From Deltaproteobacteria bacterium (GTDB lineage: Bacteria; Desulfobacterota; Syntrophia; Syntrophales; UBA2210), in NCBI GenBank assembly GCA_016930775.1, contig JAFGGB010000074.1:1-44855 (forward strand): a stretch of DNA of 44,855 nt. The letters are read 5' to 3'. A program made the translations under genes and the position numbers. This document shows positions 3,467-44,848 of the stretch, piece by piece; position 1 is the stretch's first letter, and every line of letters starts with the position of its first letter. The notes beneath the pieces were generated by a model that worked only from the letters and a program-made list of their open reading frames with translations, had not been told where the DNA came from and did no database searches.

Positions 3467-5206
3467 ATGGATCCTGATGTTCATGAAAACGGCAGAATGA
3501 TCGTTCATACAGGCCATTCGTCGATCTTTGTATCATGGAAGCTCGTTTATTTCATGCTTGCATCTCTTTGCGGTGCAGCGGCGATTGCATCCTGCACCGG
3601 CAGGGTCGGCGAGGGGTTCCAGCACGTCGGCAATGTGTATCTTACGGATTTCAGCAGGGAGGCGCCATCCATTATTGTCGACGCGCGACAGTCAATCGAC
3701 GCCATCCTGAGCGCCGTCAAGAGGGATCAGGTCCTTCCTGGTCTTGATATTCTTGATCCCTATGATGGAACGATATTTCCACCGGATATGGCGCAGCCCC
3801 GTTTCCGCTGGATGCCCAAACCTGACTGGAGTTTCCTCTACCTGGTGGAAAGCCGTTCCCTTCGTTCCGGCCTGGTTGTATACGTCTTAACAGATAAAAG
3901 CGAATGGGAACCCTCGGAAAAGGTATGGACATTAATAAAAGACCGTTCAATGAACACGGCAGAGTGTTTTACTGTCTACGCTCTCGGAGAGCTTTCTCAT
4001 GATCGCATCGTCGCCAAGGGTTCCGTGACATTTACAACCTCTACGGACCCTCTGGGCTCGCCTGTCATGTACATCCAACTGCCATTGCCGTTCAGCAGGG
4101 CTAAACAATCGCCCGGAGTCTTCGCACTGAAGCTCGGAGATGTTGCCTCGCGGGGGAAACCAAGAACGGTGTTATCAGGCATGAACGCCTGCATGAACTG
4201 CCACGCCTTGTCGTCCGACGGGCGACTTTTCGGAATAGATATCGATTACCGGGGGGACAAAGGAGGATATATCGTTAAAGAAGTCGCTTCCACTATGGTG
4301 ATTGGCGAGGAAGACATAATTTCATGGAACGATGTTCGACGGTCCGACGGGATCGATAGCGCCGGTTTTTTCTCCCGCATATCGCCTGACGGGAAGTTCA
4401 TTGTCAGTACCGTAAAGGAAAAACCATTCTTCACAATGATTCCCGATATTGAATTTTCGCAATTTTTCTTTCCTGTAACGGGTCTCATCGCTTTCTACGA
4501 TGTGGAGAAAAAACAATTCAGTCTGTTGCCTGGTGCAAGCGATCCCGATTATGTGCAGACTTGCCCCGAATGGTCGCCCGACGGCAACTGGATTGTCTTT
4601 GCTCGGACGAAGCGGAATCCGGCATTGGAATCCCTTCTCGGGGACAAACGCTACATTACGATTGAACCGCACGAACGCATCCGCGACCTCAATAAGAAAT
4701 ACCGGATACATTTCGAACTCTGCCGCATTCCTTTCAACGGCGGCAAAGGGGGATCTCCGTTGCCGCTGGCAGGGGCCAGCGGCAACGGCATGAGCAATTA
4801 CTTTCCCCGCTGGTCTCCCGACGGACGCTGGATAGTCTTCACGCAGAGTCCCACGGGCCTTGCCATTCAACCGGAAAGCAAGCTTGTCATCATCCCGGCC
4901 GAAGGTGGCAATCCCCGGACGATGCAATGCAACACCGATATCATGAACTCCTGGCACAGTTGGTCTCCGAACGGCCGGTGGCTGGTCTTTTCATCGAAAG
5001 CCAACTCTCCCTATACGGAACTTTTTCTGACACATGTCGACGAAGATGGCAACGACAGCCCTCCCGTCATCCTGTCCCGATTCAGTTCTTCAAGGCTTGC
5101 CTGCGTAGCGCCCGAAATAGTCAATATTCCTGAAGGCGCCATGGACAGCGTGACGTTTTCGGGGTCACGAGAACAACCGAAATACATAGATCCAAATACT
5201 CGATAA
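3467..5206 (+). CDS. PD40 (TolB-like) beta-propeller lipoprotein with one c-type heme motif
   Basis: From 3467 the product is 579 residues. An in-frame ATG at 3428 would overlap the previous gene and lacks a ribosome site, whereas 3467 follows AGGGAG by a few bases. A hydrophobic segment at about 25-42 ends in lipobox IASC (Cys43). Residues 242-246 are CMNCH, a CxxCH heme c attachment motif in a segment reading NACMNCHALSSDGR. At least four propeller repeats follow with the WSPDG.WIVF signature, near residues 301, 366, 446 and 495, typical of PD40/TolB blades. The protein would sit outside the cytoplasm as a lipidated, heme-carrying propeller. Whether it transfers electrons, senses or binds protein partners is not evident. 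It is embedded in the exported cluster and followed closely by a GDPD gene. Confidence 0.75.
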   Translation: MDPDVHENGRMIVHTGHSSIFVSWKLVYFMLASLCGAAAIASCTGRVGEGFQHVGNVYLTDFSREAPSIIVDARQSIDAILSAVKRDQVLPGLDILDPYDGTIFPPDMAQPRFRWMPKPDWSFLYLVESRSLRSGLVVYVLTDKSEWEPSEKVWTLIKDRSMNTAECFTVYALGELSHDRIVAKGSVTFTTSTDPLGSPVMYIQLPLPFSRAKQSPGVFALKLGDVASRGKPRTVLSGMNACMNCHALSSDGRLFGIDIDYRGDKGGYIVKEVASTMVIGEEDIISWNDVRRSDGIDSAGFFSRISPDGKFIVSTVKEKPFFTMIPDIEFSQFFFPVTGLIAFYDVEKKQFSLLPGASDPDYVQTCPEWSPDGNWIVFARTKRNPALESLLGDKRYITIEPHERIRDLNKKYRIHFELCRIPFNGGKGGSPLPLAGASGNGMSNYFPRWSPDGRWIVFTQSPTGLAIQPESKLVIIPAEGGNPRTMQCNTDIMNSWHSWSPNGRWLVFSSKANSPYTELFLTHVDEDGNDSPPVILSRFSSSRLACVAPEIVNIPEGAMDSVTFSGSREQPKYIDPNTR

Positions 5207-5214
5207 CAAGATTG

Positions 5215-6117
5215 ATGATAATGTCCGGAGCATCCTTTAAGAAAGGCGCCTTAGCACGCCCCTTGGACGGGGAAGTGGATCTTCAGGGCCATCGTGGCGC
5301 CCGGGGCAGAAGGCCGGAAAACACGATTCCTGCCTTTCGATACTGTATCGATCAAGGGATGACGACCATTGAACTTGACACGAACGTGACGAAAGACGAC
5401 CAACTGATCGTCTGTCACGATACCATGCTGAACGGTTCGATCTGCCGTGACGAGCGGGGCAATGCCGCCCCTCCCATTCCGATCGGCGATCTCACGGTGG
5501 CGGAACTGAAGCTGTACGATTGCGGATCCGTCATGAATCCGGCCTTTCCTGAGCAGGTTCCTGTTCCGGGGACTTCTATGCCGACCCTTCCGGAGGCGTT
5601 CGCCTTTGCGAAGAATTACGAATCGGGACGAGAACTTGCAAGACCAATGCGCTTCAATATCGAAACAAAATTTGCCAGGGACTGCACGGCGAAAGATATT
5701 GAGAGAAGCGCCCGTCTCGTCGTTGCGGCTATCGTTGACGCCGGCATGGCTGAACGGGCCACCGTCCAGTCGTTCGTTCTGCCGGTCCTTCCGATCGTGA
5801 AGAGGCTCGATTCACGCATTTGCAGGTCCGCTCTCTTTGAATCGTCATTCATACAGCGCAGCGGCAATGAAATTATCTTAGCAGCGAGGGAAGCGGAGGC
5901 GGGCATTATTTCCCCTCACGTCAACGCAGTCACATCAGCTTTCGTTGAACAATGCCACGCAGCGGGCTTTCGGGTACTTGTCTGGACCGTTAATGAGGAG
6001 GTAGACATGCTGCGGCTTTTTGCCTGGGGTGTGGACGGCATCATTTCCGACTATCCCGACCGGCTGGCACGGGCATATTCGCAGCGGAAGACAGATTTCA
6101 TCGAAACGTCTCTTTGA
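5215..6117 (+). CDS. Glycerophosphodiester phosphodiesterase family protein (GDPD)
   Basis: The roughly 300-residue protein hydrolyses, by family, glycerophosphodiesters to glycerol-3-phosphate and an alcohol. The fingerprint HRGARGRRPENT is present at residues 26-37, with His26 and Arg27; Glu53 and Asp55 in ELDTN and His68 in VCHD complete the metal and catalytic set. NIETK in the middle and SDYPDRL near the end are also typical. No signal peptide is visible, so it is probably cytoplasmic although its upstream neighbours are exported. Start choice is open: TTG 5212, ATG 5215 and ATG 5221 are all in frame and none has a strong ribosome site. The gap to the previous stop is under 15 bases, so it probably shares that transcript. 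Confidence 0.88.
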   Translation: MIMSGASFKKGALARPLDGEVDLQGHRGARGRRPENTIPAFRYCIDQGMTTIELDTNVTKDDQLIVCHDTMLNGSICRDERGNAAPPIPIGDLTVAELKLYDCGSVMNPAFPEQVPVPGTSMPTLPEAFAFAKNYESGRELARPMRFNIETKFARDCTAKDIERSARLVVAAIVDAGMAERATVQSFVLPVLPIVKRLDSRICRSALFESSFIQRSGNEIILAAREAEAGIISPHVNAVTSAFVEQCHAAGFRVLVWTVNEEVDMLRLFAWGVDGIISDYPDRLARAYSQRKTDFIETSL

Positions 6118-6176
6118 TCGATTCCATTTCGTTTTGAAGCATGAAATCAAGATTCAATTCAATAGAGTCTGTTGCT

Positions 6177-6623
6177 TCAGTTCATTTTTACAACAAAAAC
6201 AGGCGCTGTTGATTTTCGGACGATCACTTCTGATTTTGATTTCATTAATTCTGCTCTCATATGGTCCATTCCGTGAGAACCGATAATAGTGACGGGAGAC
6301 CCCTCCTCCTGATCAACTTTGAGAATTTCGGAGGCGGGATCGCCCCAGCGGATGATGGTCCGAACCGAAATGCCTTCCCGTGCAAGCATTACAGCCAGAT
6401 CATCCATCAATTTCTGGGCGGAATTGTAATTGTCGGATCTCATTTTTTCAAGGTCGGCAAATGAGGCAACATATCGGGAAAGATTGTTGAAGGCGCCCTC
6501 ATCAAGAATATGCAGAAGCACTACTTCTTTAAGCCCGTTTTTTTTGAGTTTCTTTAATGTTTGAAGTATAGACAGAGTAACATCGCATGAGAAATCGACG
6601 GGGTATAATATCTTGGTAAGCAT
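6177..6623 (-). CDS. Universal stress protein (UspA family)
   Basis: The 148-residue single-domain protein starts with MLTKILYPVDFS, the first beta strand of the Usp fold. Its C-terminal half carries IIGSHGMDHMRAELMKSKSE, which is only a degenerate match to the ATP-binding G-2x-G-9x-G(S/T) pattern because the later glycine is missing, so nucleotide binding is uncertain. It ends with the usual APVFVVK strand. I prefer the ATG at 6623, ten bases after GGAGG; the upstream TTG at 6632 is too close to that site. It is a single gene, convergent with the GDPD gene and divergent from the DUF2779 gene. Confidence 0.88.
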   Translation of the reverse strand: MLTKILYPVDFSCDVTLSILQTLKKLKKNGLKEVVLLHILDEGAFNNLSRYVASFADLEKMRSDNYNSAQKLMDDLAVMLAREGISVRTIIRWGDPASEILKVDQEEGSPVTIIGSHGMDHMRAELMKSKSEVIVRKSTAPVFVVKMN

Positions 6624-7154
6624 GATCGACAATCCTCCATAGTGAGCACTGATGACCTATTGAAACTTTGCAATGAAGAGGCTAGGCGGGGGGTGTCATG
6701 GAAGATCTTCATCGCATAACCAAATCTGATAATAATGGTAATAATAGCTGATAACGCAATAAACACAATAAAGTAATAATATAGTAAATATGCCAGCATC
6801 TAACTGTATATGTTGCTATGGTAGTATCGCAATAGATAAACAATATAGGGTGTTACTCGTTAGTCATTTTTGAGATATTACAAGTCGGTTTTACGATATG
6901 CAAGGCAGCGAGAGGCGAGTTTGGAAAGAAGATGCTAACAATCGTAAAGCTAATAGGTGTCTTTGTCATGCTGGCAGTGGCAGTTCCTTCGCTGTGGGCG
7001 GCTGCCCTGCGGGTTTTTCATTTAGCAGGGTGAGTGAACCGAAAGAGGGGGCCTTTGCAATTCTCGGATTTATGCACCCTTTTCAATTACAGAAACCTAT
7101 TTTGGACAAATGTGTCTTGCAATATAAATCGTAATTCCGTAAAAAACAGTTCGG
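6624..7154. other. AT-rich divergent intergenic region of about 530 bases
   Basis: This interval separates the minus-strand stress-protein gene from the plus-strand DUF2779 gene. About 6720-6850 is strongly AT-rich with repeated ATAATAATGG- and AATAATAG-like words, so it is easily melted and probably carries promoters, but I cannot single out one -35/-10 pair. The only coding candidate is a 33-codon frame at 6932, listed separately. No RNA gene or convincing terminator was found. Confidence 0.5.
6932..7033 (+). CDS. Possible 33-residue signal-peptide-like small protein or truncated gene remnant
   Basis: The frame from ATG 6932 to TGA 7033 reads MLTIVKLIGVFVMLAVAVP followed by SLWAAALRVFHLAG. 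It therefore looks like an export signal with a plausible cleavage after WAA and almost nothing behind it. GGAAAG lies about five bases upstream. It could be a small membrane peptide, or the start of an exported protein cut off by a frameshift; no downstream frame continues it convincingly. Its sequence alone does not prove it is expressed. Confidence 0.22.
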   Translation: MLTIVKLIGVFVMLAVAVPSLWAAALRVFHLAG

Positions 7155-8660
7155 ATGCCGAATATGGTCGATACAATATTCCCGTTGCAATTAAGCAAAT
7201 CTCTTTTCATGAGAGGAATTGTCTGCCGCCGGGCGCTCTATTTTCTCTTGCGGAACCACGAATCCAATAAAAAGCATACTGCATCGCGCTCTTATCTTGC
7301 CGAGATAAGCGCAGAGGTCGAACTCCTGGCCCGAAAGCTTTTTCCTTCGGGCGTGACGATAAACGTGAAAAATACAGAATCCAAAGAGCAGATTGACGAA
7401 ACTGCAGATTGCATAATTCGAAAGGTCCCGGCTCTGTTCGGGGGCCGCTTTCGTTCTGGCGAACTTTGCGTACGCACTGACATACTGAAGAAGGCTGGCG
7501 ATAGCTGGGAACTGTTTGAAGTGAAGAGTGCAAGTTCTCTAAAAAAAGCCTATTTCGAAGATGCGGCTTATCAGTATTATGTTCTTCGAGGGGCAGGGAT
7601 TGCCGTGGAAAAGGTTTCTGTTATGCACATCGATTCCACGTATGTACGGGATGGTTCTTTGAGTCCTGAGAGCCTTTTCAGGATTCATGACGTGACAGAA
7701 GCGGTCAGGGAGCGGCAACCACTAATCGCTCAGGAAATAGGCGAGATGCGAAGAATTCTAAAGGGCAATCCGCCAGAAGCCGTCATAGGAAAAAAATGTA
7801 CAGAACCGGAGAATTGTGAATTCAAAGATTGCTGTTGGCATGACGTACCCATGGATTCCATTCTCGATCTCAGAGGCGAGGGTGTTGACAAGTATCGACT
7901 TTACAAGATGGGCATACGGTCGATGGCCGATGCACCCAGGCGCCTGCTTTCCGATTTCCAACGCATTCAGGCCGATGCCGCGGTCAGACGAAGCAATGTT
8001 GTGGACCGTCCTAAACTTAAGCAATTTCTTCAGTCGCTCTGGCATCCTCTGTGCTTCCTGGATTTCGAGATCATGCAACACCCCGTGCCTTTGTTCGAGG
8101 GCATGAGACCCTATCAGCAAATGCCTTTTCAGTATTCACTTCACCTGGTGAATCGACGGGACAGCGGTCTTATCCACTATGAATACCTGGCGGATCCGGG
8201 GATTGACGGACGGCGCATCATTGCGGAAAAACTTCTTTCAGAAATACCTGAAGACGCCTGCATTATCGTTTACAATGCTATGTCGGAACTGCTGATCCTC
8301 AGGGAACTGGCCGCCGCTGCGCCCGAGTTGGCTTCGAAATTCAATCGCATGGCGGACAATGTCCGCGATCTGATGACGCCATTCCGAGAACGGTATCTTT
8401 ACAAGAGTAAGATGATGGGCTCTTTTTCTTTGAAGACGGTATTTCGGGCTTTGACTGGGAAGAACTGCTACGAGAAAATGGCTATCACGAGCGGCGCCAT
8501 GGCAATGGCGGCCTATTTCAGGCTATCCCGGTCCGACGATCCTCGCGGACGGGAATCCATTGTTTCAAACCTTCGTCAATACTGCAAGCTCGACAGCCTT
8601 GCCATGGTTATGATTCTGGATAGAATTGAGCAACTGGTCAATGAAGGCGGTTCCTCATGA
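7155..8660 (+). CDS. DUF2779 protein: Cas4/RecB-like Fe-S nuclease domain joined to a DnaQ-like exonuclease domain
   Basis: The 501-residue protein has two recognisable parts. Residues 1-230 resemble RecB/Cas4-type PD-(D/E)xK nucleases: Asp109, Glu122 and Lys124 fit the D...ExK core in LFEVKSA. One early cysteine (Cys24 in RGIVCRRALYFL) plus Cys215, Cys221 and Cys226/227 fit the one-plus-three pattern of a Cas4-type 4Fe-4S cluster. From about 295, FLDFEIMQHPVPLFEG and QMPFQYSLH match DUF2779, whose LDFE (Asp303, Glu305) resembles motif I of DEDD exonucleases; YCKLDSLAMV near Asp480 resembles the last motif. The biological role is unknown. The start at 7155 has no strong ribosome site; ATG 7164 is an alternative. 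It is not next to CRISPR or repair genes. Confidence 0.8.
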   Translation: MPNMVDTIFPLQLSKSLFMRGIVCRRALYFLLRNHESNKKHTASRSYLAEISAEVELLARKLFPSGVTINVKNTESKEQIDETADCIIRKVPALFGGRFRSGELCVRTDILKKAGDSWELFEVKSASSLKKAYFEDAAYQYYVLRGAGIAVEKVSVMHIDSTYVRDGSLSPESLFRIHDVTEAVRERQPLIAQEIGEMRRILKGNPPEAVIGKKCTEPENCEFKDCCWHDVPMDSILDLRGEGVDKYRLYKMGIRSMADAPRRLLSDFQRIQADAAVRRSNVVDRPKLKQFLQSLWHPLCFLDFEIMQHPVPLFEGMRPYQQMPFQYSLHLVNRRDSGLIHYEYLADPGIDGRRIIAEKLLSEIPEDACIIVYNAMSELLILRELAAAAPELASKFNRMADNVRDLMTPFRERYLYKSKMMGSFSLKTVFRALTGKNCYEKMAITSGAMAMAAYFRLSRSDDPRGRESIVSNLRQYCKLDSLAMVMILDRIEQLVNEGGSS

Positions 8661-8727
8661 GAATCCACTCAATTGATTTCCTTGCAAGTGCTTAGCTAAA
8701 GTCCATGACGAGGCAGCGAGGCGTCGT

Positions 8728-10092
8728 TCAGGCGGGATTCTTCGACGCGATGGCGCCTGCGCCGATATAAATCCCTTCTATAGATTCTGTCACAGCAAAG
8801 AAACGATGGAGTTCATTGCCCTGCAAAATCCGTCCCGGCGGGAATTTGACCCTGGCCGGGTTGACTTGTCTGCCGTACTTGTGAACCTCGTAATGAAGGT
8901 GGGGACCGGTTGCCATGCCTGTATCGCCGACATAACCCAACACGTCTCCCTGACTGATTCGACCTCCCGAGCGAACCTTCGGGGCGATGCGGCTCAGATG
9001 GGCATAGGCGGTGCTGTATTCATGGTTGTGGCGTATTGAAACATATTTGCCGTAGTTGCCTTTCCATCCCCCAAATGTTACTGTTCCTGAGCCGGAGGCC
9101 ATGACGGGGGTTCCCAGAGGAGCGGCGAAATCGACGCCTTGATGCATGATGCTGAACCCTTTGATCGGATGGTGGCGGAGACCATAGCGGGAGCTGAGGC
9201 GAGCGCCGTTGATTGGTGTTCGAAGAAGCGTCTTGCGTACGGACTGACCCCGCTCGTTATAGTAGTCAGGGACTCCATCGGCGGCGGTGAATCGGTAAAC
9301 TTTCAACGATTCGCCGCGTACTAGCAGATGTGCGTAAAGTACGGGACCTTCACGAACGAGAACCCCATCCTGGTCAAAATATTCTTCATATACGACGTTA
9401 AAAGATTCCCCGCCCTTGAGATCGCGCTGAAAATCGACGTCAAAGGAAAAGGGTTCGATAAGCTGCATCAGAATGTTTTCCGACAGGCCGGCAGAACGGG
9501 CTGCTTCATAGAGCGTTTCCTTGACCACTCCTTCAGTGCGCACGATTCTCATAGTTAATGGGCATTCCCGTTCGCAGATATCGAATGCGCCTGTTTGTGT
9601 TGATGTTACAAGAAGTTCCTTGTCGTAACTAGTTTTTAACGATATTCCATGGAAAATTCTTTTGCTGTCCTTGCGGCCATCCGATCGAAAAAGTACCATC
9701 AATGCCTGGCCTGGAACGATTTGACGGGGGTCATATCGGAGCTTCAGGGCTTGGACGACTCTAATAATGAGATTGTTATCAAGACCTATGGAGGAGAGGA
9801 TGGAGTGAACCGTATCTCCCACACAAACATTCCTCCGTATACGTTCCAGCGACATCGACGATTTCAGCATCGAAGGAGAAATGATTTGTGCGGCGCTTCG
9901 AGACACACTCCTGTCATCGGTATGCAGATTTACTGTTTCGGGGATGGTACGGTCGTGAACGGGAGGGATGATGAAGAAGAACAGAACAATCATGCCGACC
10001 AGGAAAATGACGGAAAAGATGAAAAAATGCCTTTTCTTCCCGCCCTTTCCGGAGAACAAGCTCATTCTTGTTTCTTGTCGATCTTCGCTCAT
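8728..10092 (-). CDS. Membrane-anchored M23 family peptidoglycan endopeptidase with LysM-like domain
   Basis: The 454-residue protein has a basic N-terminus and one transmembrane segment (about 22-43), placing the rest outside the cytoplasmic membrane. Residues 85-135 contain VCVGDTVHSIL and later VPGQALMVLF, a LysM/OapA-like cell-wall-binding pattern. The catalytic M23 domain is at about 300-420: MHQGVDFAAPLGTPV gives the zinc ligands His317 and Asp321, and GPHLHYEV gives His398 and His400. All expected metal residues are present, so an active endopeptidase that cleaves peptidoglycan cross-links is likely, as in MepM. It is a single gene, divergent from the MBL-fold gene; GGAGAG precedes the ATG. 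Confidence 0.92.
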   Translation of the reverse strand: MSEDRQETRMSLFSGKGGKKRHFFIFSVIFLVGMIVLFFFIIPPVHDRTIPETVNLHTDDRSVSRSAAQIISPSMLKSSMSLERIRRNVCVGDTVHSILSSIGLDNNLIIRVVQALKLRYDPRQIVPGQALMVLFRSDGRKDSKRIFHGISLKTSYDKELLVTSTQTGAFDICERECPLTMRIVRTEGVVKETLYEAARSAGLSENILMQLIEPFSFDVDFQRDLKGGESFNVVYEEYFDQDGVLVREGPVLYAHLLVRGESLKVYRFTAADGVPDYYNERGQSVRKTLLRTPINGARLSSRYGLRHHPIKGFSIMHQGVDFAAPLGTPVMASGSGTVTFGGWKGNYGKYVSIRHNHEYSTAYAHLSRIAPKVRSGGRISQGDVLGYVGDTGMATGPHLHYEVHKYGRQVNPARVKFPPGRILQGNELHRFFAVTESIEGIYIGAGAIASKNPA

Positions 10093-10258
10093 AGATTATT
10101 ATTCTCTCCGCAACGGGCCATTCATATAGCATCCATTGCATTATTAGACAACCGGTGAGTGACAGAGTTTTTAAATTCTGATAGATAGAGGCGGTGTTTC
10201 ATCGCAGGCTCAAGGGCCTTCGGTAATTAAACTTCTGTGGGGAAAGGAGATACAGCCG

Positions 10259-11173
10259 GTGCGTGTTTGTACACCAGGGCCGATATGTACAGGATTGTGG
10301 ATGCTGGGGCGCGAAGAATCTAACATATATATTTTAGAGGGATCGAAAGAATCGGTCATCATCAGCGGAGGATTGTGCGTTATTGTTCCTGAGGTTCTCA
10401 GGCAATTAAAAGAATTCAACATCAACATTGCTTCAATCAAGAAGCTTGTCATACTGCATTCTCATTTCGACCACGTTGGCGTCGTTCCCTACTTTAAGCG
10501 CACTCTTGTGCCCGGAATCGAGCTTCTCGGATCTGCCCGGACATGGGACCTGCTTTCGCAAGACAAGGCCCTTGCAACGATAAATCTCTTCAATAAAATG
10601 ACAATTTCAAGAATGAACAATTCATCGGGAATCTCCATTGAAGATTGCCAATGGGCGGGGGATATCAAAGGCTCTGTGCTTCGCGAGGGCGATGAGATTG
10701 ATGTCGGCGGCTTAACGCTTACGGTCATCGAAACCCCCGGCCATTCTTCCTGTTCAATCTCACTCTATTGCCCTCAATTGAAGGCTCTTTTCCCGTCGGA
10801 TGGGGTGGGAATTCCTTTCCGCGGCAACATAATGCCCGCAGGAAATTCTAATTTTACTTTATACCAGAGCAATCTGGAACGTATGAAAAGTTATGATGCA
10901 AACTATGTCTGTGCGGATCATTACGGTTATGTATCCGGCGATGAGGCGGCAGGCTATATGAAAGATTCAATAGAGGCTGCGGCGAGATTCCGCAGGCACA
11001 TGGAAGGCGTCTATGAGAAAAAGGGCAATATAAATGAAACGGTGAGGTATCTTGTTGCCGCGAGTCTTAAGGCCTATCCCGAATATTTTCTTCCGAAGGA
11101 AATATTAGAGGGAATCTACAGACAGATGGTGCGCCACATTGCCGAGAAATTGGAAGAGCAGGGGTGTCGTTAA
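10259..11173 (+). CDS. Metallo-beta-lactamase-fold hydrolase
   Basis: The 304-residue protein has a complete two-metal MBL signature: His67, His69, Asp71 and His72 in LHSHFDHVG, His162 in TPGHS, Asp181 in SDG and His221 in ADHYG. It begins with GTG at 10259, nine bases after GGAAAGGAG. The residues after the core (about 230-304) form a helical C-terminal extension. Members act on thioesters, glutathione adducts, cyclic nucleotides or beta-lactams, and the substrate cannot be told from sequence. Its position 101 bases before an acyl-CoA synthetase gene fits a thioester hydrolase role, but that is inference only. Confidence 0.85.
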   Translation: MRVCTPGPICTGLWMLGREESNIYILEGSKESVIISGGLCVIVPEVLRQLKEFNINIASIKKLVILHSHFDHVGVVPYFKRTLVPGIELLGSARTWDLLSQDKALATINLFNKMTISRMNNSSGISIEDCQWAGDIKGSVLREGDEIDVGGLTLTVIETPGHSSCSISLYCPQLKALFPSDGVGIPFRGNIMPAGNSNFTLYQSNLERMKSYDANYVCADHYGYVSGDEAAGYMKDSIEAAARFRRHMEGVYEKKGNINETVRYLVAASLKAYPEYFLPKEILEGIYRQMVRHIAEKLEEQGCR

Positions 11174-11274
11174 CCATCGTTGCTCAAGGGACCAAATCGC
11201 AAAATCCCTATTAAGCGGGCAATGAAACCACAAACTTTTGTATCGTCCATCATCGACAGGCGGAGAGTGATGCA

Positions 11275-13443
11275 ATGAAAAAGGGAGAACCTAGAGGAGC
11301 CCTTTCAGAGAAAGAATCCCTCATAATTCTTGAGGAATACGGTATCCCCGTTGTGGCGTCGACAGTGGCGGCCGGCGAGGACGAGGCAGAAAAAGCAGCG
11401 AAGCGATTCGGCTATCCGGTGGCTGTGAAAGCTCTGGGACGGTCACTGCTCCATAAGAGCGATAAAGGACTCGTTCATCTGAATTGTAATGACGCTTCGG
11501 CCGTTCGACAGGCTGTCAGGGCTATACAAATCGGGGCAGGAGATGAGCTGGAAGCCGTTCTCGTGGCGCCCCAGGTGCCGGGAACCCGCGAATTTATGGC
11601 CGGTTTCTATCGTGACAAGCAATTTGGTCCGGTCATTCTTTTCGGTCTCGGCGGCGTATTAACAGAGGCCTTGGGGGATATAGCCATTAGGCTGGCCCCA
11701 TTGTCCCCGGGCGATGAAGAAGAGATGATCATGGCACTTAGGTCTAGAAGGCTTCTCGATGCCTTTCGAGGCGAGGCGCCGGCCAAACATGAGACCCTGA
11801 AGATTGTTTTGGCTGCCCTGTCGCGTATAGCCATGGAACGGCCCGATATCGGAGAAATTGATATCAACCCTCTCAAGGTAACCCCCAATGGTGGGATAGT
11901 GGCGGTAGATGCACTGGTTATAAGGAACGACAGTGAAGCAGTGGCAGAGGGTTCGAAACCCATCGATCCGGGAGACATTCAATCGATTTTTAATCCTGGA
12001 TCGGTGGCCTTTGTCGGCGCCTCGTCCCAGATGGGGAAATGGGGACATATGCTCCTGGTGAACACTGTAGCCGGTGGATTTGAAGGGGCCATTCATCTGG
12101 TGAATCCCAAAGGTGGAACAATCGCAGGACGGGAGGCATACCGATCCGTAGAAGATATTCCAGGACCTGTCGATCTTGCCGTAGTGACCATTCCCGCAGC
12201 AAAGGTTTTCGAACTGATACCTCAGTTCGAGAGAAAAGACATTCGACGGATGATCCTGATAACTTCGGGATTTGGTGAACTCGGCGAAGCGGGCAAGGAT
12301 CTCGAAAGGAAAGTTGTTGAAGCGGCCCGACGCGCCGATATCCTAATAGTTGGTCCGAACACGATGGGCATTAGCAATCCCCATATTCGTTTTTACTGTA
12401 CGGGGACGCCGGTGGCCTCCCAGGCGGGTTCCATCGCCATGATAGCACAGTCGGGGAATCTCGGCGTTCAACTTCTAGCCTTTGCAGAAAAACAGGGTAT
12501 CGGCATCAGGGCTTTTTGCGGATCGGGCAACGAGGCCATGATTACTATCGAGGACTATATCGATGGTTTTACCGACGATGATGCAACGAAGACTATTATG
12601 CTCTACGTTGAAAGCGTCAAGGACGGGCATCGGTTTTACGAGAGCGCCCGAAGAGTTGCATCGAAAAAACCCATAGTTCTGTTGAAGGGGGGTGAAAGTA
12701 AAGCCGGGAACCGAGCCGCTGCCAGCCATACCGGTGCAATGGCGTCGGACAGCAGAGTCTTCAGCGCCCTCTGTAGGCAGGCAGGCATTGTCAAGGTCGA
12801 TCAATCGACCGATTTGCTCGACTGTGCCGCAGCTTTTTCATCCCTGCCGCTGCCCCGTGGACAAAGAGTGGCCGTGATGACTATAGGTGGTGGATGGGGG
12901 GTAGTAACGGCCGATTTATGCGAAGCTTGGGGATTGGAGCTGCCGCCGTTGCCGGCGGACATTGTGCGGAAATTCGATGCAATGCTTCCAGACTATTGGA
13001 GCAGAGGCAATCCGGTTGACATTGTAGGCGAGAATAATCCTCTTCTTCCGATGACCATTATCGAAGAATTAATACAATGGGACGGCTGCGATGCCGTCAT
13101 CAATCTTGGAATACTCGGACGACGTATTTTCGTGAACCGGCTTGCCGATTCAGTGCGGAAGGCGGATCCGACATTCTCAAGGGATTTTCTCGACTATGCC
13201 GAAAAAGTCATGAGCGAAGTTGAGGATCAGTATATCGCACGGGTCGCCCGTCTCATGGAAGAACACAATAAGCCGATCTACGGAGTAAACCTCCTTCGTG
13301 ACGAGGAAGACCGTACTATCTATGCCGTTTCATCGAGTCGATACCAGAGCGTATTTTTCCCATCGCCTGAAAGAGCAGTAAAGGCCTGTGCGCGGATGTG
13401 CCAGTATTACCGTTTCAGGCAGCGGCTAAACACAGAACCGTAA
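11275..13443 (+). CDS. ADP-forming acetate/acyl-CoA ligase, fused beta-alpha order
   Basis: The 722-residue enzyme interconverts, by family, acyl-CoA + ADP + Pi with the free acid + ATP + CoA, allowing substrate-level ATP synthesis. An ATP-grasp domain (about 1-225, with GYPVAVKALG and LGGVLTE) comes first. A CoA-binding Rossmann domain follows at 235-330 (IFNPGSVAFVGAS), then two succinyl-CoA-ligase-like domains (about 385-700, starting IAMIAQSGNLG). His485 in ASHTGA is the likely phosphorylated histidine. The nucleotide-grasp part precedes the CoA part, the reverse of many fused forms. GGAG lies before ATG 11275. In a syntrophic organism this reaction would gain ATP from acyl-CoA intermediates. 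Confidence 0.9.
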   Translation: MKKGEPRGALSEKESLIILEEYGIPVVASTVAAGEDEAEKAAKRFGYPVAVKALGRSLLHKSDKGLVHLNCNDASAVRQAVRAIQIGAGDELEAVLVAPQVPGTREFMAGFYRDKQFGPVILFGLGGVLTEALGDIAIRLAPLSPGDEEEMIMALRSRRLLDAFRGEAPAKHETLKIVLAALSRIAMERPDIGEIDINPLKVTPNGGIVAVDALVIRNDSEAVAEGSKPIDPGDIQSIFNPGSVAFVGASSQMGKWGHMLLVNTVAGGFEGAIHLVNPKGGTIAGREAYRSVEDIPGPVDLAVVTIPAAKVFELIPQFERKDIRRMILITSGFGELGEAGKDLERKVVEAARRADILIVGPNTMGISNPHIRFYCTGTPVASQAGSIAMIAQSGNLGVQLLAFAEKQGIGIRAFCGSGNEAMITIEDYIDGFTDDDATKTIMLYVESVKDGHRFYESARRVASKKPIVLLKGGESKAGNRAAASHTGAMASDSRVFSALCRQAGIVKVDQSTDLLDCAAAFSSLPLPRGQRVAVMTIGGGWGVVTADLCEAWGLELPPLPADIVRKFDAMLPDYWSRGNPVDIVGENNPLLPMTIIEELIQWDGCDAVINLGILGRRIFVNRLADSVRKADPTFSRDFLDYAEKVMSEVEDQYIARVARLMEEHNKPIYGVNLLRDEEDRTIYAVSSSRYQSVFFPSPERAVKACARMCQYYRFRQRLNTEP

Positions 13444-38595: not shown

Positions 38596-38672
<77 letters not shown>

Positions 38673-38673
38673 T

Positions 38674-38713
38674 GCAATAAAAAAAACCGCCCATGGGCGG
38701 TTTTTTTTATTGC
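38674..38713. terminator. Perfect 40-nt palindromic terminator after tRNA-Pro
   Basis: Positions 38674-38693 are an exact reverse complement of 38694-38713. GCAAT, eight A, CCGCCCA pairs with TGGGCGG, eight T, ATTGC. The GC-rich centre and the A-tract/U-tract flanks make an intrinsic terminator usable in both directions. It ends the tRNA-Pro transcript before the tRNA-Leu promoter. Confidence 0.93.
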
Positions 38714-38808
38714 TTTTGTCGATATGTATGAGAAGCGTTAAGGCGGTGAGTCACATACGATGTCAAGAGACACAAGACGGCAGAGAATCCTCCGGTGCGA
38801 TTGTCGCG

Positions 38809-38837
38809 TTGACAAGTATCCCGTGAGTCACTATATT
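38809..38837 (+). promoter_or_regulatory. Strong promoter of the tRNA-Leu gene
   Basis: TTGACA at 38809-38814 and TATATT at 38832-38837 are 17 bases apart, near consensus for sigma70. A start near 38844 falls 14 bases before the tRNA. No terminator is seen between the tRNA and the tig gene 25 bases on, so this promoter may also supply tig-clpP-clpX. Confidence 0.8.
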
Positions 38838-38857
38838 TGATCCAAGCTTCATAACGA

Positions 38858-38944
38858 GCGAGAGTGGCGGAACTGGAAGACGCACTGGACTTAGGATCCA
38901 GCCCGCTCATGCGGTTAGGGGTTCGACTCCCCTCTCTCGCACCA
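38858..38944 (+). tRNA. tRNA-Leu, anticodon TAG
   Basis: The 87-nt type II tRNA has acceptor stem GCGAGAG (38858-38864) with CTCTCGC, discriminator A and encoded CCA. The anticodon stem CTGGA/TCCAG encloses CTTAGGA with anticodon TAG, decoding CTA (and other CTN by wobble). A long variable arm (GCCCGCTCATGCGG region) confirms leucine type, and the T arm reads AGGGGTTCGACTCCCCT. Confidence 0.95.
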
Positions 38945-44683: not shown

Positions 44684-44759
44684 GGGCGGATAGCTCAGCT
44701 GGGAGAGCGCCACGTTTACACCGTGGATGTCACAGGTTCAAGTCCTGTTCCGCCTACCA
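44684..44759 (+). tRNA. tRNA-Val, anticodon TAC
   Basis: The 76-nt tRNA has acceptor stem GGGCGGA with TCCGCCT (one G-T closing pair), discriminator A and encoded CCA. The D arm is AGCTCAGCTGGGAGAGC, the anticodon stem CCACG/CGTGG encloses TTTACAC with anticodon TAC, and the T arm is ACAGGTTCAAGTCCTGT. Confidence 0.95.
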
Positions 44760-44771
44760 TGGGCAAAATGC

Positions 44772-44848
<77 letters not shown>

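What the first reader, a model, noticed from the sequence alone, without database searches (positions are those of the whole stretch)
7155..8660. DUF2779 protein combines a Cas4-like Fe-S nuclease with a DnaQ-like exonuclease
One chain carries D...ExK (Asp109, Glu122, Lys124) with Cys24 plus Cys215/221/226-227, the Cas4 cluster spacing, and then LDFE and YCKLD motifs of a DEDD nuclease. No CRISPR array, recombinase or mobile element is nearby, so its role is probably in general DNA or RNA processing. Two nuclease centres and an iron-sulfur cluster in one uncharacterised protein are worth biochemical attention.
Basis: partly seen in the sequence, partly recalled or inferred. Interest (0 to 1): 0.6.

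Follow-up and report, generated by a model that had tools for sequence, protein, structure and literature searches.

The report
DUF2779 double nuclease with iron-sulfur cysteines
This gene encodes a member of a known but untested protein family that joins two different DNA/RNA-cutting domains in one chain, and its relatives, though not this copy, often sit beside a type of regulator that is common at anti-phage defence genes.

Summary
ORF 7155-8660 (+), 501 aa, is a DUF2779 protein with an N-terminal Cas4/RecB-type PD-(D/E)XK domain carrying four candidate Fe-S cysteines and a C-terminal DEDD exonuclease fold. AlphaFold2 models plus structural alignment confirm both folds: Cas4 Z about 13-14; family B DNA polymerase exonuclease Z about 14-16. 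Across 62 divergent homologues (26-39% identity) D109, E122, K124, Q140, D303 and E305 never vary; E378, Y476 and D480 are nearly invariant.

Corrections: the exonuclease is DEDDy (Y476-x3-D480), PolB-like, not DnaQ/DEDDh; its motif II acid is Glu378; the last cluster cysteine is C227, not C226; the spacing is C-x5-C-x5-C, not Cas4's C-x2-C-x5-C.

The architecture is not new: Majorek et al. 2014 list DUF2779 as a predicted 3'-5' exonuclease family containing Cas4-like DUF83. New here is context: in two genome samples DUF2779 genes lie within 10 kb of WYL-regulator genes far more often than expected (12 vs 0.24; 8 vs 0.22), sometimes as adjacent pairs, and on plasmids sit among defence genes. 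The window copy has no such neighbours. Most likely it is a DNA end-processing nuclease that in many genomes serves a defence or mobile-element role. No activity has been measured.

The parts
7155..8660 (+). DUF2779 protein gene, 501 aa, ATG start, including stop codon
   Evidence: ORF; Pfam PF11074 E 5.1e-36; the only DUF2779 gene in the genome
7188..7850 (+). N-terminal Cas4/RecB-type PD-(D/E)XK domain (aa about 12-232)
   Evidence: AF2 of aa 1-240 pLDDT 87, pTM 0.85; VIA Z 14.0 Cas4 7mi5, 13.2 Cas4 8d3l, 12.9 SSO0001 4ic1, 11.6 EXO5, 11.5 MGME1 and AdnA
7479..7526 (+). PD-(D/E)XK catalytic core: Asp109 ... Glu122-Val-Lys124
   Evidence: D109, E122, K124 invariant 62/62
7572..7574 (+). Gln140, a RecB/Cas4-type motif IV glutamine (motif assignment from general knowledge of the superfamily)
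   Evidence: 62/62
7224..7226 (+). Cys24, first candidate Fe-S ligand
   Evidence: 54/62; replaced by Ser or His in 7, missing from one truncated gene
7797..7835 (+). Cys215-x5-Cys221-x5-Cys227, remaining candidate Fe-S ligands
   Evidence: 57, 58 and 55 of 62; all four Cys absent together in L046, L047, L053
7851..8039 (+). linker/helical region between the two nuclease domains (aa 233-295)
   Evidence: AF2 secondary structure
8040..8645 (+). C-terminal RNase H-fold DEDDy exonuclease domain (aa 296-497)
   Evidence: VIA Z 14-15.8 to family B DNA polymerases over aa 296-501
8061..8069 (+). Exo I: Asp303-Phe-Glu305
   Evidence: D and E 62/62
8109..8138 (+). family signature PYQQMPFQYS (aa 319-328), between Exo I and Exo II
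   Evidence: Q326 and S328 62/62, the rest 25-59 of 62
8274..8288 (+). Exo II: Asn374...Glu378 (Glu in place of the usual Asp)
   Evidence: E 61/62; the COG2251-type relative L083 also has Glu at this position
8580..8594 (+). Exo III: Tyr476-Cys-Lys-Leu-Asp480 (YxxxD)
   Evidence: Y and D 61/61 with a residue, C477 62/62

Best explanation
The protein is a two-headed nuclease. An N-terminal Cas4/RecB-type PD-(D/E)XK domain (D109, E122, K124, Q140), whose fold is probably locked by an Fe-S cluster held by C24, C215, C221 and C227, is joined to a C-terminal DEDDy 3'-5' exonuclease (D303, E305, E378, Y476, D480) of the kind found in family B DNA polymerases. Both centres probably act on DNA ends, most simply by removing the two strands with different polarity (compare 5'-3' resection by Cas4, EXO5 and lambda exonuclease with 3'-5' trimming by PolB exonuclease; polarity from general knowledge of those enzymes). 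In many bacteria the gene serves as a horizontally moving, WYL-regulated, defence- or mobile-element-associated nuclease; the window copy appears to be an isolated chromosomal copy of it. Shown by sequence and structure computation: both folds, conservation of both metal-binding sites, WYL co-localisation in relatives. Inferred: the Fe-S cluster, DNA as substrate, polarity, the defence or mobile-element role.
For: Both active sites essentially invariant in 62 divergent homologues, so both are probably used. High-confidence AF2 model (pLDDT 89, pTM 0.86); C-domain = PolB exonuclease, Z 14-16; N-domain = Cas4, Z 13-14, then EXO5, MGME1, AdnA, RecE, LHK-Exo, lambda exonuclease, AddB, Dna2, nearly all DNA nucleases. 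The four cysteines vanish together in three members that keep both active sites, as expected for one cluster. The COG2251-type relative L083 aligns over the full length and has the canonical C-x2-C-x5-C. WYL genes within 10 kb of DUF2779: 12 vs 0.24 expected (order sample), 8 vs 0.22 (phylum sample); per locus 17/44 vs 2/33 for RNase_H_2 genes in the same genomes, Fisher p 8e-4. WYL gene abutting DUF2779 on the same strand in L002, L003, L117, L122, L121 and viral contig L040, 93 nt away in L130. Plasmid homologues next to Qat, type I RM, SIR2 and helicase genes. Patchy distribution.
Against: No activity, cluster or phage phenotype has been measured. The window copy has no WYL or defence-type gene among the genes annotated (0-13.4 kb), and a Usp gene and an M23 peptidase gene flank it. 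Several chromosomal relatives sit among ordinary genes, e.g. the Clostridia L012-L014 with conserved metabolic neighbours. Co-localisation does not prove joint function. Some members lack the cysteines, so the cluster is not essential in all. The window copy has small departures at T306, F377 and T481.
Confidence: 0.55

Rival explanations
1. A housekeeping DNA repair/recombination nuclease, working at double-strand breaks or stalled forks like AddB, EXO5 or Dna2, with no specific link to defence.
For: N-domain resembles EXO5, AdnA, AddB and Dna2 as well as Cas4; the window copy and Clostridia copies have ordinary neighbours; single-copy in most genomes that have it.
Against: Absent from about 90% of genomes in the phylum and absent, apart from one sub-cut-off COG2251-type hit, from the other 18 of 19 genomes of the window's own family; plasmid-borne; WYL clustering; none of the 14 control genomes has it.
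Confidence: 0.25
2. A mobile-element or phage factor: plasmids and phages carry it for their own replication, recombination or counter-defence, and chromosomal copies are remnants or domesticated copies.
For: 29 plasmid records; 20 viral contigs, some with terminase large subunit, ParB-like, methyltransferase and integrase genes beside it; structurally similar two-domain proteins in giant viruses, TMq 0.57-0.65.
Against: No match in 50,697 GenBank phages; no integrase or Cas1 on the window contig; most matches found are chromosomal contigs.
Confidence: 0.15
3. An RNA 3'-5' exonuclease or RNA-processing enzyme (PF13482 is named RNase_H_2; other clade members such as RNase T and oligoribonuclease act on RNA).
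For: Weak RNase_H_2 match; RNase H fold.
Against: The closest solved folds of both domains are DNA nucleases; RNase T, RNase D or oligoribonuclease are not among the top 50 rows for the C-domain (weak evidence only).
Confidence: 0.12
4. A member of a CRISPR adaptation system (a true Cas4).
For: Cas_Cas4 Pfam and PADLOC matches; Cas4 is the best fold match.
Against: The genome's four Cas1 genes are all on other contigs; no direct repeats found in 4000-13000; C-terminal exonuclease and different Cys spacing.
Confidence: 0.02

Closest known systems
DUF2779 family PF11074 (family F.17 of Majorek et al. 2014, PMC3985635)
   Same: This is a member: PF11074 E 5e-36; the paper predicts 3'-5' exonuclease activity and notes the DUF83 (Cas4-like) domain
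   Different: The passages of the paper read here do not discuss the cysteines, motif II Glu, DEDDy class or genomic context; no purified member is described in the passages read of papers that use the name DUF2779
COG2251 / PF13482 RecB-family nuclease with RNase_H_2 domain (family F.13; example L083 in the window's own taxonomic family)
   Same: Same two-domain order and full-length profile match (hhalign prob 96.6, 22% identity), Glu at motif II, YxxxD motif III
   Different: Has canonical C-x2-C-x5-C spacing, lacks the PYQQMPFQYS signature; COG2251 often also carries AAA domains (PMC3985635); RNase_H_2 genes are less often near WYL (2/33 vs 17/44)
Cas4 (type I-C Cas4, Cas4 of the Cas4/Cas1/Cas2 complexes 7mi4/7mi5, SSO0001, Pcal_0546)
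   Same: N-terminal fold Z 13-14 (Pcal_0546 9.2), catalytic residues, four Cys of which three are C-terminal
   Different: Spacing x5 instead of x2 between Cys 2 and 3; extra C-terminal exonuclease; no Cas1/Cas2 partner
Family B DNA polymerase 3'-5' exonuclease domain (E. coli Pol II, KOD, Pol alpha fold)
   Same: C-terminal domain fold Z 14-16; DxE and YxxxD motifs
   Different: Glu at motif II; no polymerase; fused to a Cas4-like domain
Giant virus proteins (Faunusvirus, Cafeteria roenbergensis virus E3T4R0 'YprB ribonuclease H-like')
   Same: Foldseek hit across most of the model, TMq 0.57-0.65
   Different: Larger (594-892 aa), 10-13% identity; motifs not examined here

Membership tests
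DUF2779 (PF11074) | Profile match over the curated cut-off | tested here: met
   124.2 bits vs 23.3, full 1-126 of the model
DUF2779 (PF11074) | N-terminal Cas4-like (DUF83) domain, as reported by Majorek et al. 2014 | tested here: met
   PF01930 22.8 vs 22.7 bits; fold match to Cas4 Z 13-14
PD-(D/E)XK nuclease superfamily | D...(D/E)xK in the conserved core fold | tested here: met
   D109/E122/K124 62/62; fold
Cas4 (CRISPR adaptation) | Four cysteines with C-x2-C-x5-C in the C-terminal trio | tested here: not met
   C-x5-C-x5-C
Cas4 (CRISPR adaptation) | Encoded with cas1/cas2 or a CRISPR array | tested here: not met
   Cas1 genes on C222, C107, C91, C31, not on the window contig C99; no direct repeats in 4000-13000
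Fe-S nuclease (AddB/Cas4 type) | Bound 4Fe-4S (or 2Fe-2S) cluster | not testable with these tools
DnaQ-like DEDDh exonuclease | His in motif III (HxxxxD) | tested here: not met
   Y476-x3-D480 in 61/61
DEDDy exonuclease (family B polymerase type) | DxE, motif III YxxxD and PolB exonuclease fold | tested here: met
DEDDy exonuclease (family B polymerase type) | Asp in motif II | tested here: not met
   Glu378 in 61/62; Glu is shared with the COG2251-type relative. A conservative acidic replacement, so I claim the fold and motif class, not strict membership of the polymerase exonuclease family
COG2251 / PF13482 RNase_H_2 | PF13482 match over the cut-off | tested here: not met
   19 bits vs 22; sister family rather than member
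UU173 family (NF045869) | NCBIfam match over the cut-off | tested here: not met
   51.2 vs 225 bits
Known anti-phage defence system | Composition matching a described system | tested here: not met
   Only Cas4 models match in PADLOC; no partner genes among the window's annotated neighbours

The most novel reading that the evidence does not exclude
DUF2779 is the effector of an undescribed, WYL-regulated anti-phage or anti-plasmid module in which a Cas4-like Fe-S nuclease and a DEDDy exonuclease in one chain together degrade both strands of invading DNA.
Probability: 0.25. Interest if true: 0.65.

Novelty: new member of a known kind. Interest (0 to 1): 0.36.

Why it matters
A single chain holding two complete, nearly invariant nuclease centres of different fold is unusual, and no tested member was found here. 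If the WYL association means defence, it adds a testable candidate to the anti-phage repertoire; if not, it is an uncharacterised DNA-repair nuclease. Either answer would give a function to a DUF family found in Campylobacterota, Bacillota, Bacteroidota, Pseudomonadota, Patescibacteria, plasmids and viral contigs.

Tried and rejected
True Cas4 of CRISPR adaptation: rejected (no Cas1 or repeats nearby, wrong Cys spacing, extra domain). DnaQ/DEDDh: rejected by Y476-x3-D480. A fixed partner gene immediately upstream of DUF2779: upstream genes are usually co-directional but mostly fall in unrelated clusters; only WYL recurs widely. Phage origin of the window copy: no GenBank phage match. Synteny with relatives of the window's own taxonomic family to see an empty site: the flanking M23 gene has only 30-45% identical relatives, so no syntenic site was found. 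Sequence search of solved structures gave only chance aldolase hits, and the profile search gave none. Search for integrases close to DUF2779 in 40 genomes: none stood out among the rows shown, but the list was truncated. My simple ORF caller picked antisense shadow ORFs in a few GC-rich loci (L121, L123, probably L141), so the neighbourhood gene lists are incomplete there; the WYL distance test does not depend on it. The order-level control regions (20, about 10 kb or less) were shorter than the test loci (5-18 kb), so the 11/15 vs 0/20 comparison is cruder than the genome-wide distance test. PADLOC and Pfam neighbour tallies list only the 25 most frequent families, so general defence-gene enrichment was not quantified beyond WYL.

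Full report
OBSERVATION. The ORF at 7155-8660 (+) encodes 501 aa. It is the only DUF2779 gene in its genome. Pfam gives DUF2779 (E 5e-36, aa 300-425), Cas_Cas4 at its cut-off (aa 107-228) and RNase_H_2 just below its cut-off (aa 342-490). PADLOC Cas4 models match at E 7e-8.

CONSERVATION. I aligned 62 homologues, 26-39% identical to the window protein, from chromosomes, plasmids and viral contigs. D109, E122, K124, D136, Q140, D303 and E305 are invariant; E378 61/62; Y476 and D480 61/61 where a residue is present. C24, C215, C221 and C227 are kept in 54, 57, 58 and 55. C226 is not a family cysteine (4/62). Three viral-contig members (L046, L047, L053) have lost all four cysteines together while keeping both active sites, which fits one shared structural cluster. 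The trio spacing is C-x5-C-x5-C, unlike Cas4. A COG2251-type relative in the window's own taxonomic family (L083) aligns over the full length and has the canonical C-x2-C-x5-C.

STRUCTURE. AlphaFold2 on a 19-sequence alignment gives pLDDT 89, pTM 0.86. The C-terminal domain (aa 296-501) matches family B DNA polymerase exonuclease domains, Z 14-15.8. The N-terminal part folded alone matches Cas4 best (Z 14.0, 13.8, 13.2, 12.9), then EXO5, MGME1, AdnA, RecE, LHK-Exo, lambda exonuclease, AddB and Dna2. The motif pattern D-x-E / E / YxxxD makes it DEDDy with Glu in motif II, a feature shared with COG2251-type L083. Giant virus proteins have a similar overall fold.

KNOWN. Majorek et al. 2014 (PMC3985635) already place DUF2779 (F.17) in the 3'-5' exonuclease clade and note its DUF83 (Cas4-like) domain, the same as COG2251. 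So the architecture is not a discovery. Only six papers in the library use the name DUF2779 and one PF11074; the four whose passages I read give no experiment on the purified protein. One reports a transposon insertion in an M. bovis DUF2779 gene among mutants studied for survival in cell culture (PMC7373297).

CONTEXT OF THE WINDOW COPY. Neighbours are a Usp gene (opposite strand upstream), an M23 peptidase (convergent downstream), GDPD, metallo-beta-lactamase fold and acyl-CoA ligase-type genes. There is a 522-bp gap upstream. The genome's Cas1 and phage integrase genes lie on other contigs. Base composition around the gene is in the range of the window. Of 19 genomes of its taxonomic family it is the only one with a DUF2779 match over the cut-off.

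CONTEXT OF RELATIVES. On plasmids (regions) homologues lie beside a Qat system (L067), type I RM and Fic genes (L058), SIR2/DUF87/helicase genes (L066), and DEAD helicase, ATPase and PLD-family genes (L063). In chromosomes one neighbour recurs: a WYL-domain regulator. WYL domains: 7 of 115 neighbour proteins in the order sample, 4 of 82 in a wider sample, and none of 149 control proteins by a local WYL model. Using whole-genome WYL positions: order sample 12 WYL genes within 10 kb of 15 DUF2779 genes, 0.24 expected; phylum sample 8 near 29 genes, 0.22 expected. Per locus 17/44 for DUF2779 vs 2/33 for the RNase_H_2 genes of the same genomes (Fisher p 8e-4). Genomes are related and some order-level islands may share one origin, so p-values are nominal; one genome (G008) appears in both genome lists and was counted once. 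The pair is adjacent on the same strand in L002 and L003 (the two closest named relatives), L117, L122 (overlapping), L121 (WYL downstream) and viral contig L040, and 93 nt apart in L130. WYL regulators of the BrxR family are known to co-localise with phage defence systems (PMC9122601).

VIRAL CONTIGS. Twenty IMG/VR contigs encode it; neighbours include terminase, methyltransferase, ParB-like and integrase genes, so some are phages or elements that use the protein for themselves. No GenBank phage matches.

INTERPRETATION. Shown by computation: two folds, two conserved metal sites, conserved cysteines, WYL co-localisation in relatives. Inferred: the cluster, DNA as substrate, opposite polarity, defence role. 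I favour a DNA end-processing nuclease that in many lineages belongs to WYL-regulated defence or mobile loci, and regard the window copy as an isolated chromosomal copy whose own role is open.

Noticed in passing
L002:3993-6440, L003:3999-6497, L117:1-2398, L122:5693-8313, L121:665-3184, L040:6499-9509: A WYL regulator gene and a DUF2779 gene adjacent (gap -16 to 18 nt) on the same strand in unrelated bacteria and one viral contig: a possible two-gene module.
   Followed up: partly
L046:2442-3929, L047:8001-9509, L053:8001-9506: Three DUF2779 proteins from viral contigs lack all four cluster cysteines but keep both nuclease centres.
   Followed up: partly
L067:5952-13768: On an Aliarcobacter plasmid DUF2779 directly follows the qatC and TatD genes of a Qat anti-phage system and precedes an SF1-type AAA_11/AAA_12 helicase and, further on, a dGTPase gene.
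   Followed up: no
L058:6791-7918, L061:6923-8011, L006:247-1545: In Campylobacterota a second, separate nuclease gene (PDDEXK_4 in L058) lies immediately upstream of DUF2779.
   Followed up: no
L057:6684-9506, L060:7980-9755: DUF2779 proteins with long extensions (about 440 aa N-terminal, open frame only; about 80 aa C-terminal) without a Pfam domain.
   Followed up: no
G000 contig C91:18697-27834: The window's genome has four Cas1 genes; one lies about 8 kb from a WYL regulator gene.
   Followed up: no
BFVD A0A3G4ZWN9, E3T4R0, A0A3G5AGZ9, A0A5K0U8I2: Giant virus proteins share the overall two-domain fold of the DUF2779 model (TMq 0.57-0.65).
   Followed up: no
L070:2699-5617, L071:4146-6992, L081:3141-5984: In the order-level relatives an AAA ATPase gene paired with a Clp-protease-like gene recurs near DUF2779 and WYL.
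   Followed up: no
window 38596-38941 and 44684-44845: Four tRNA genes at the far end of the window (Rfam).
   Followed up: no
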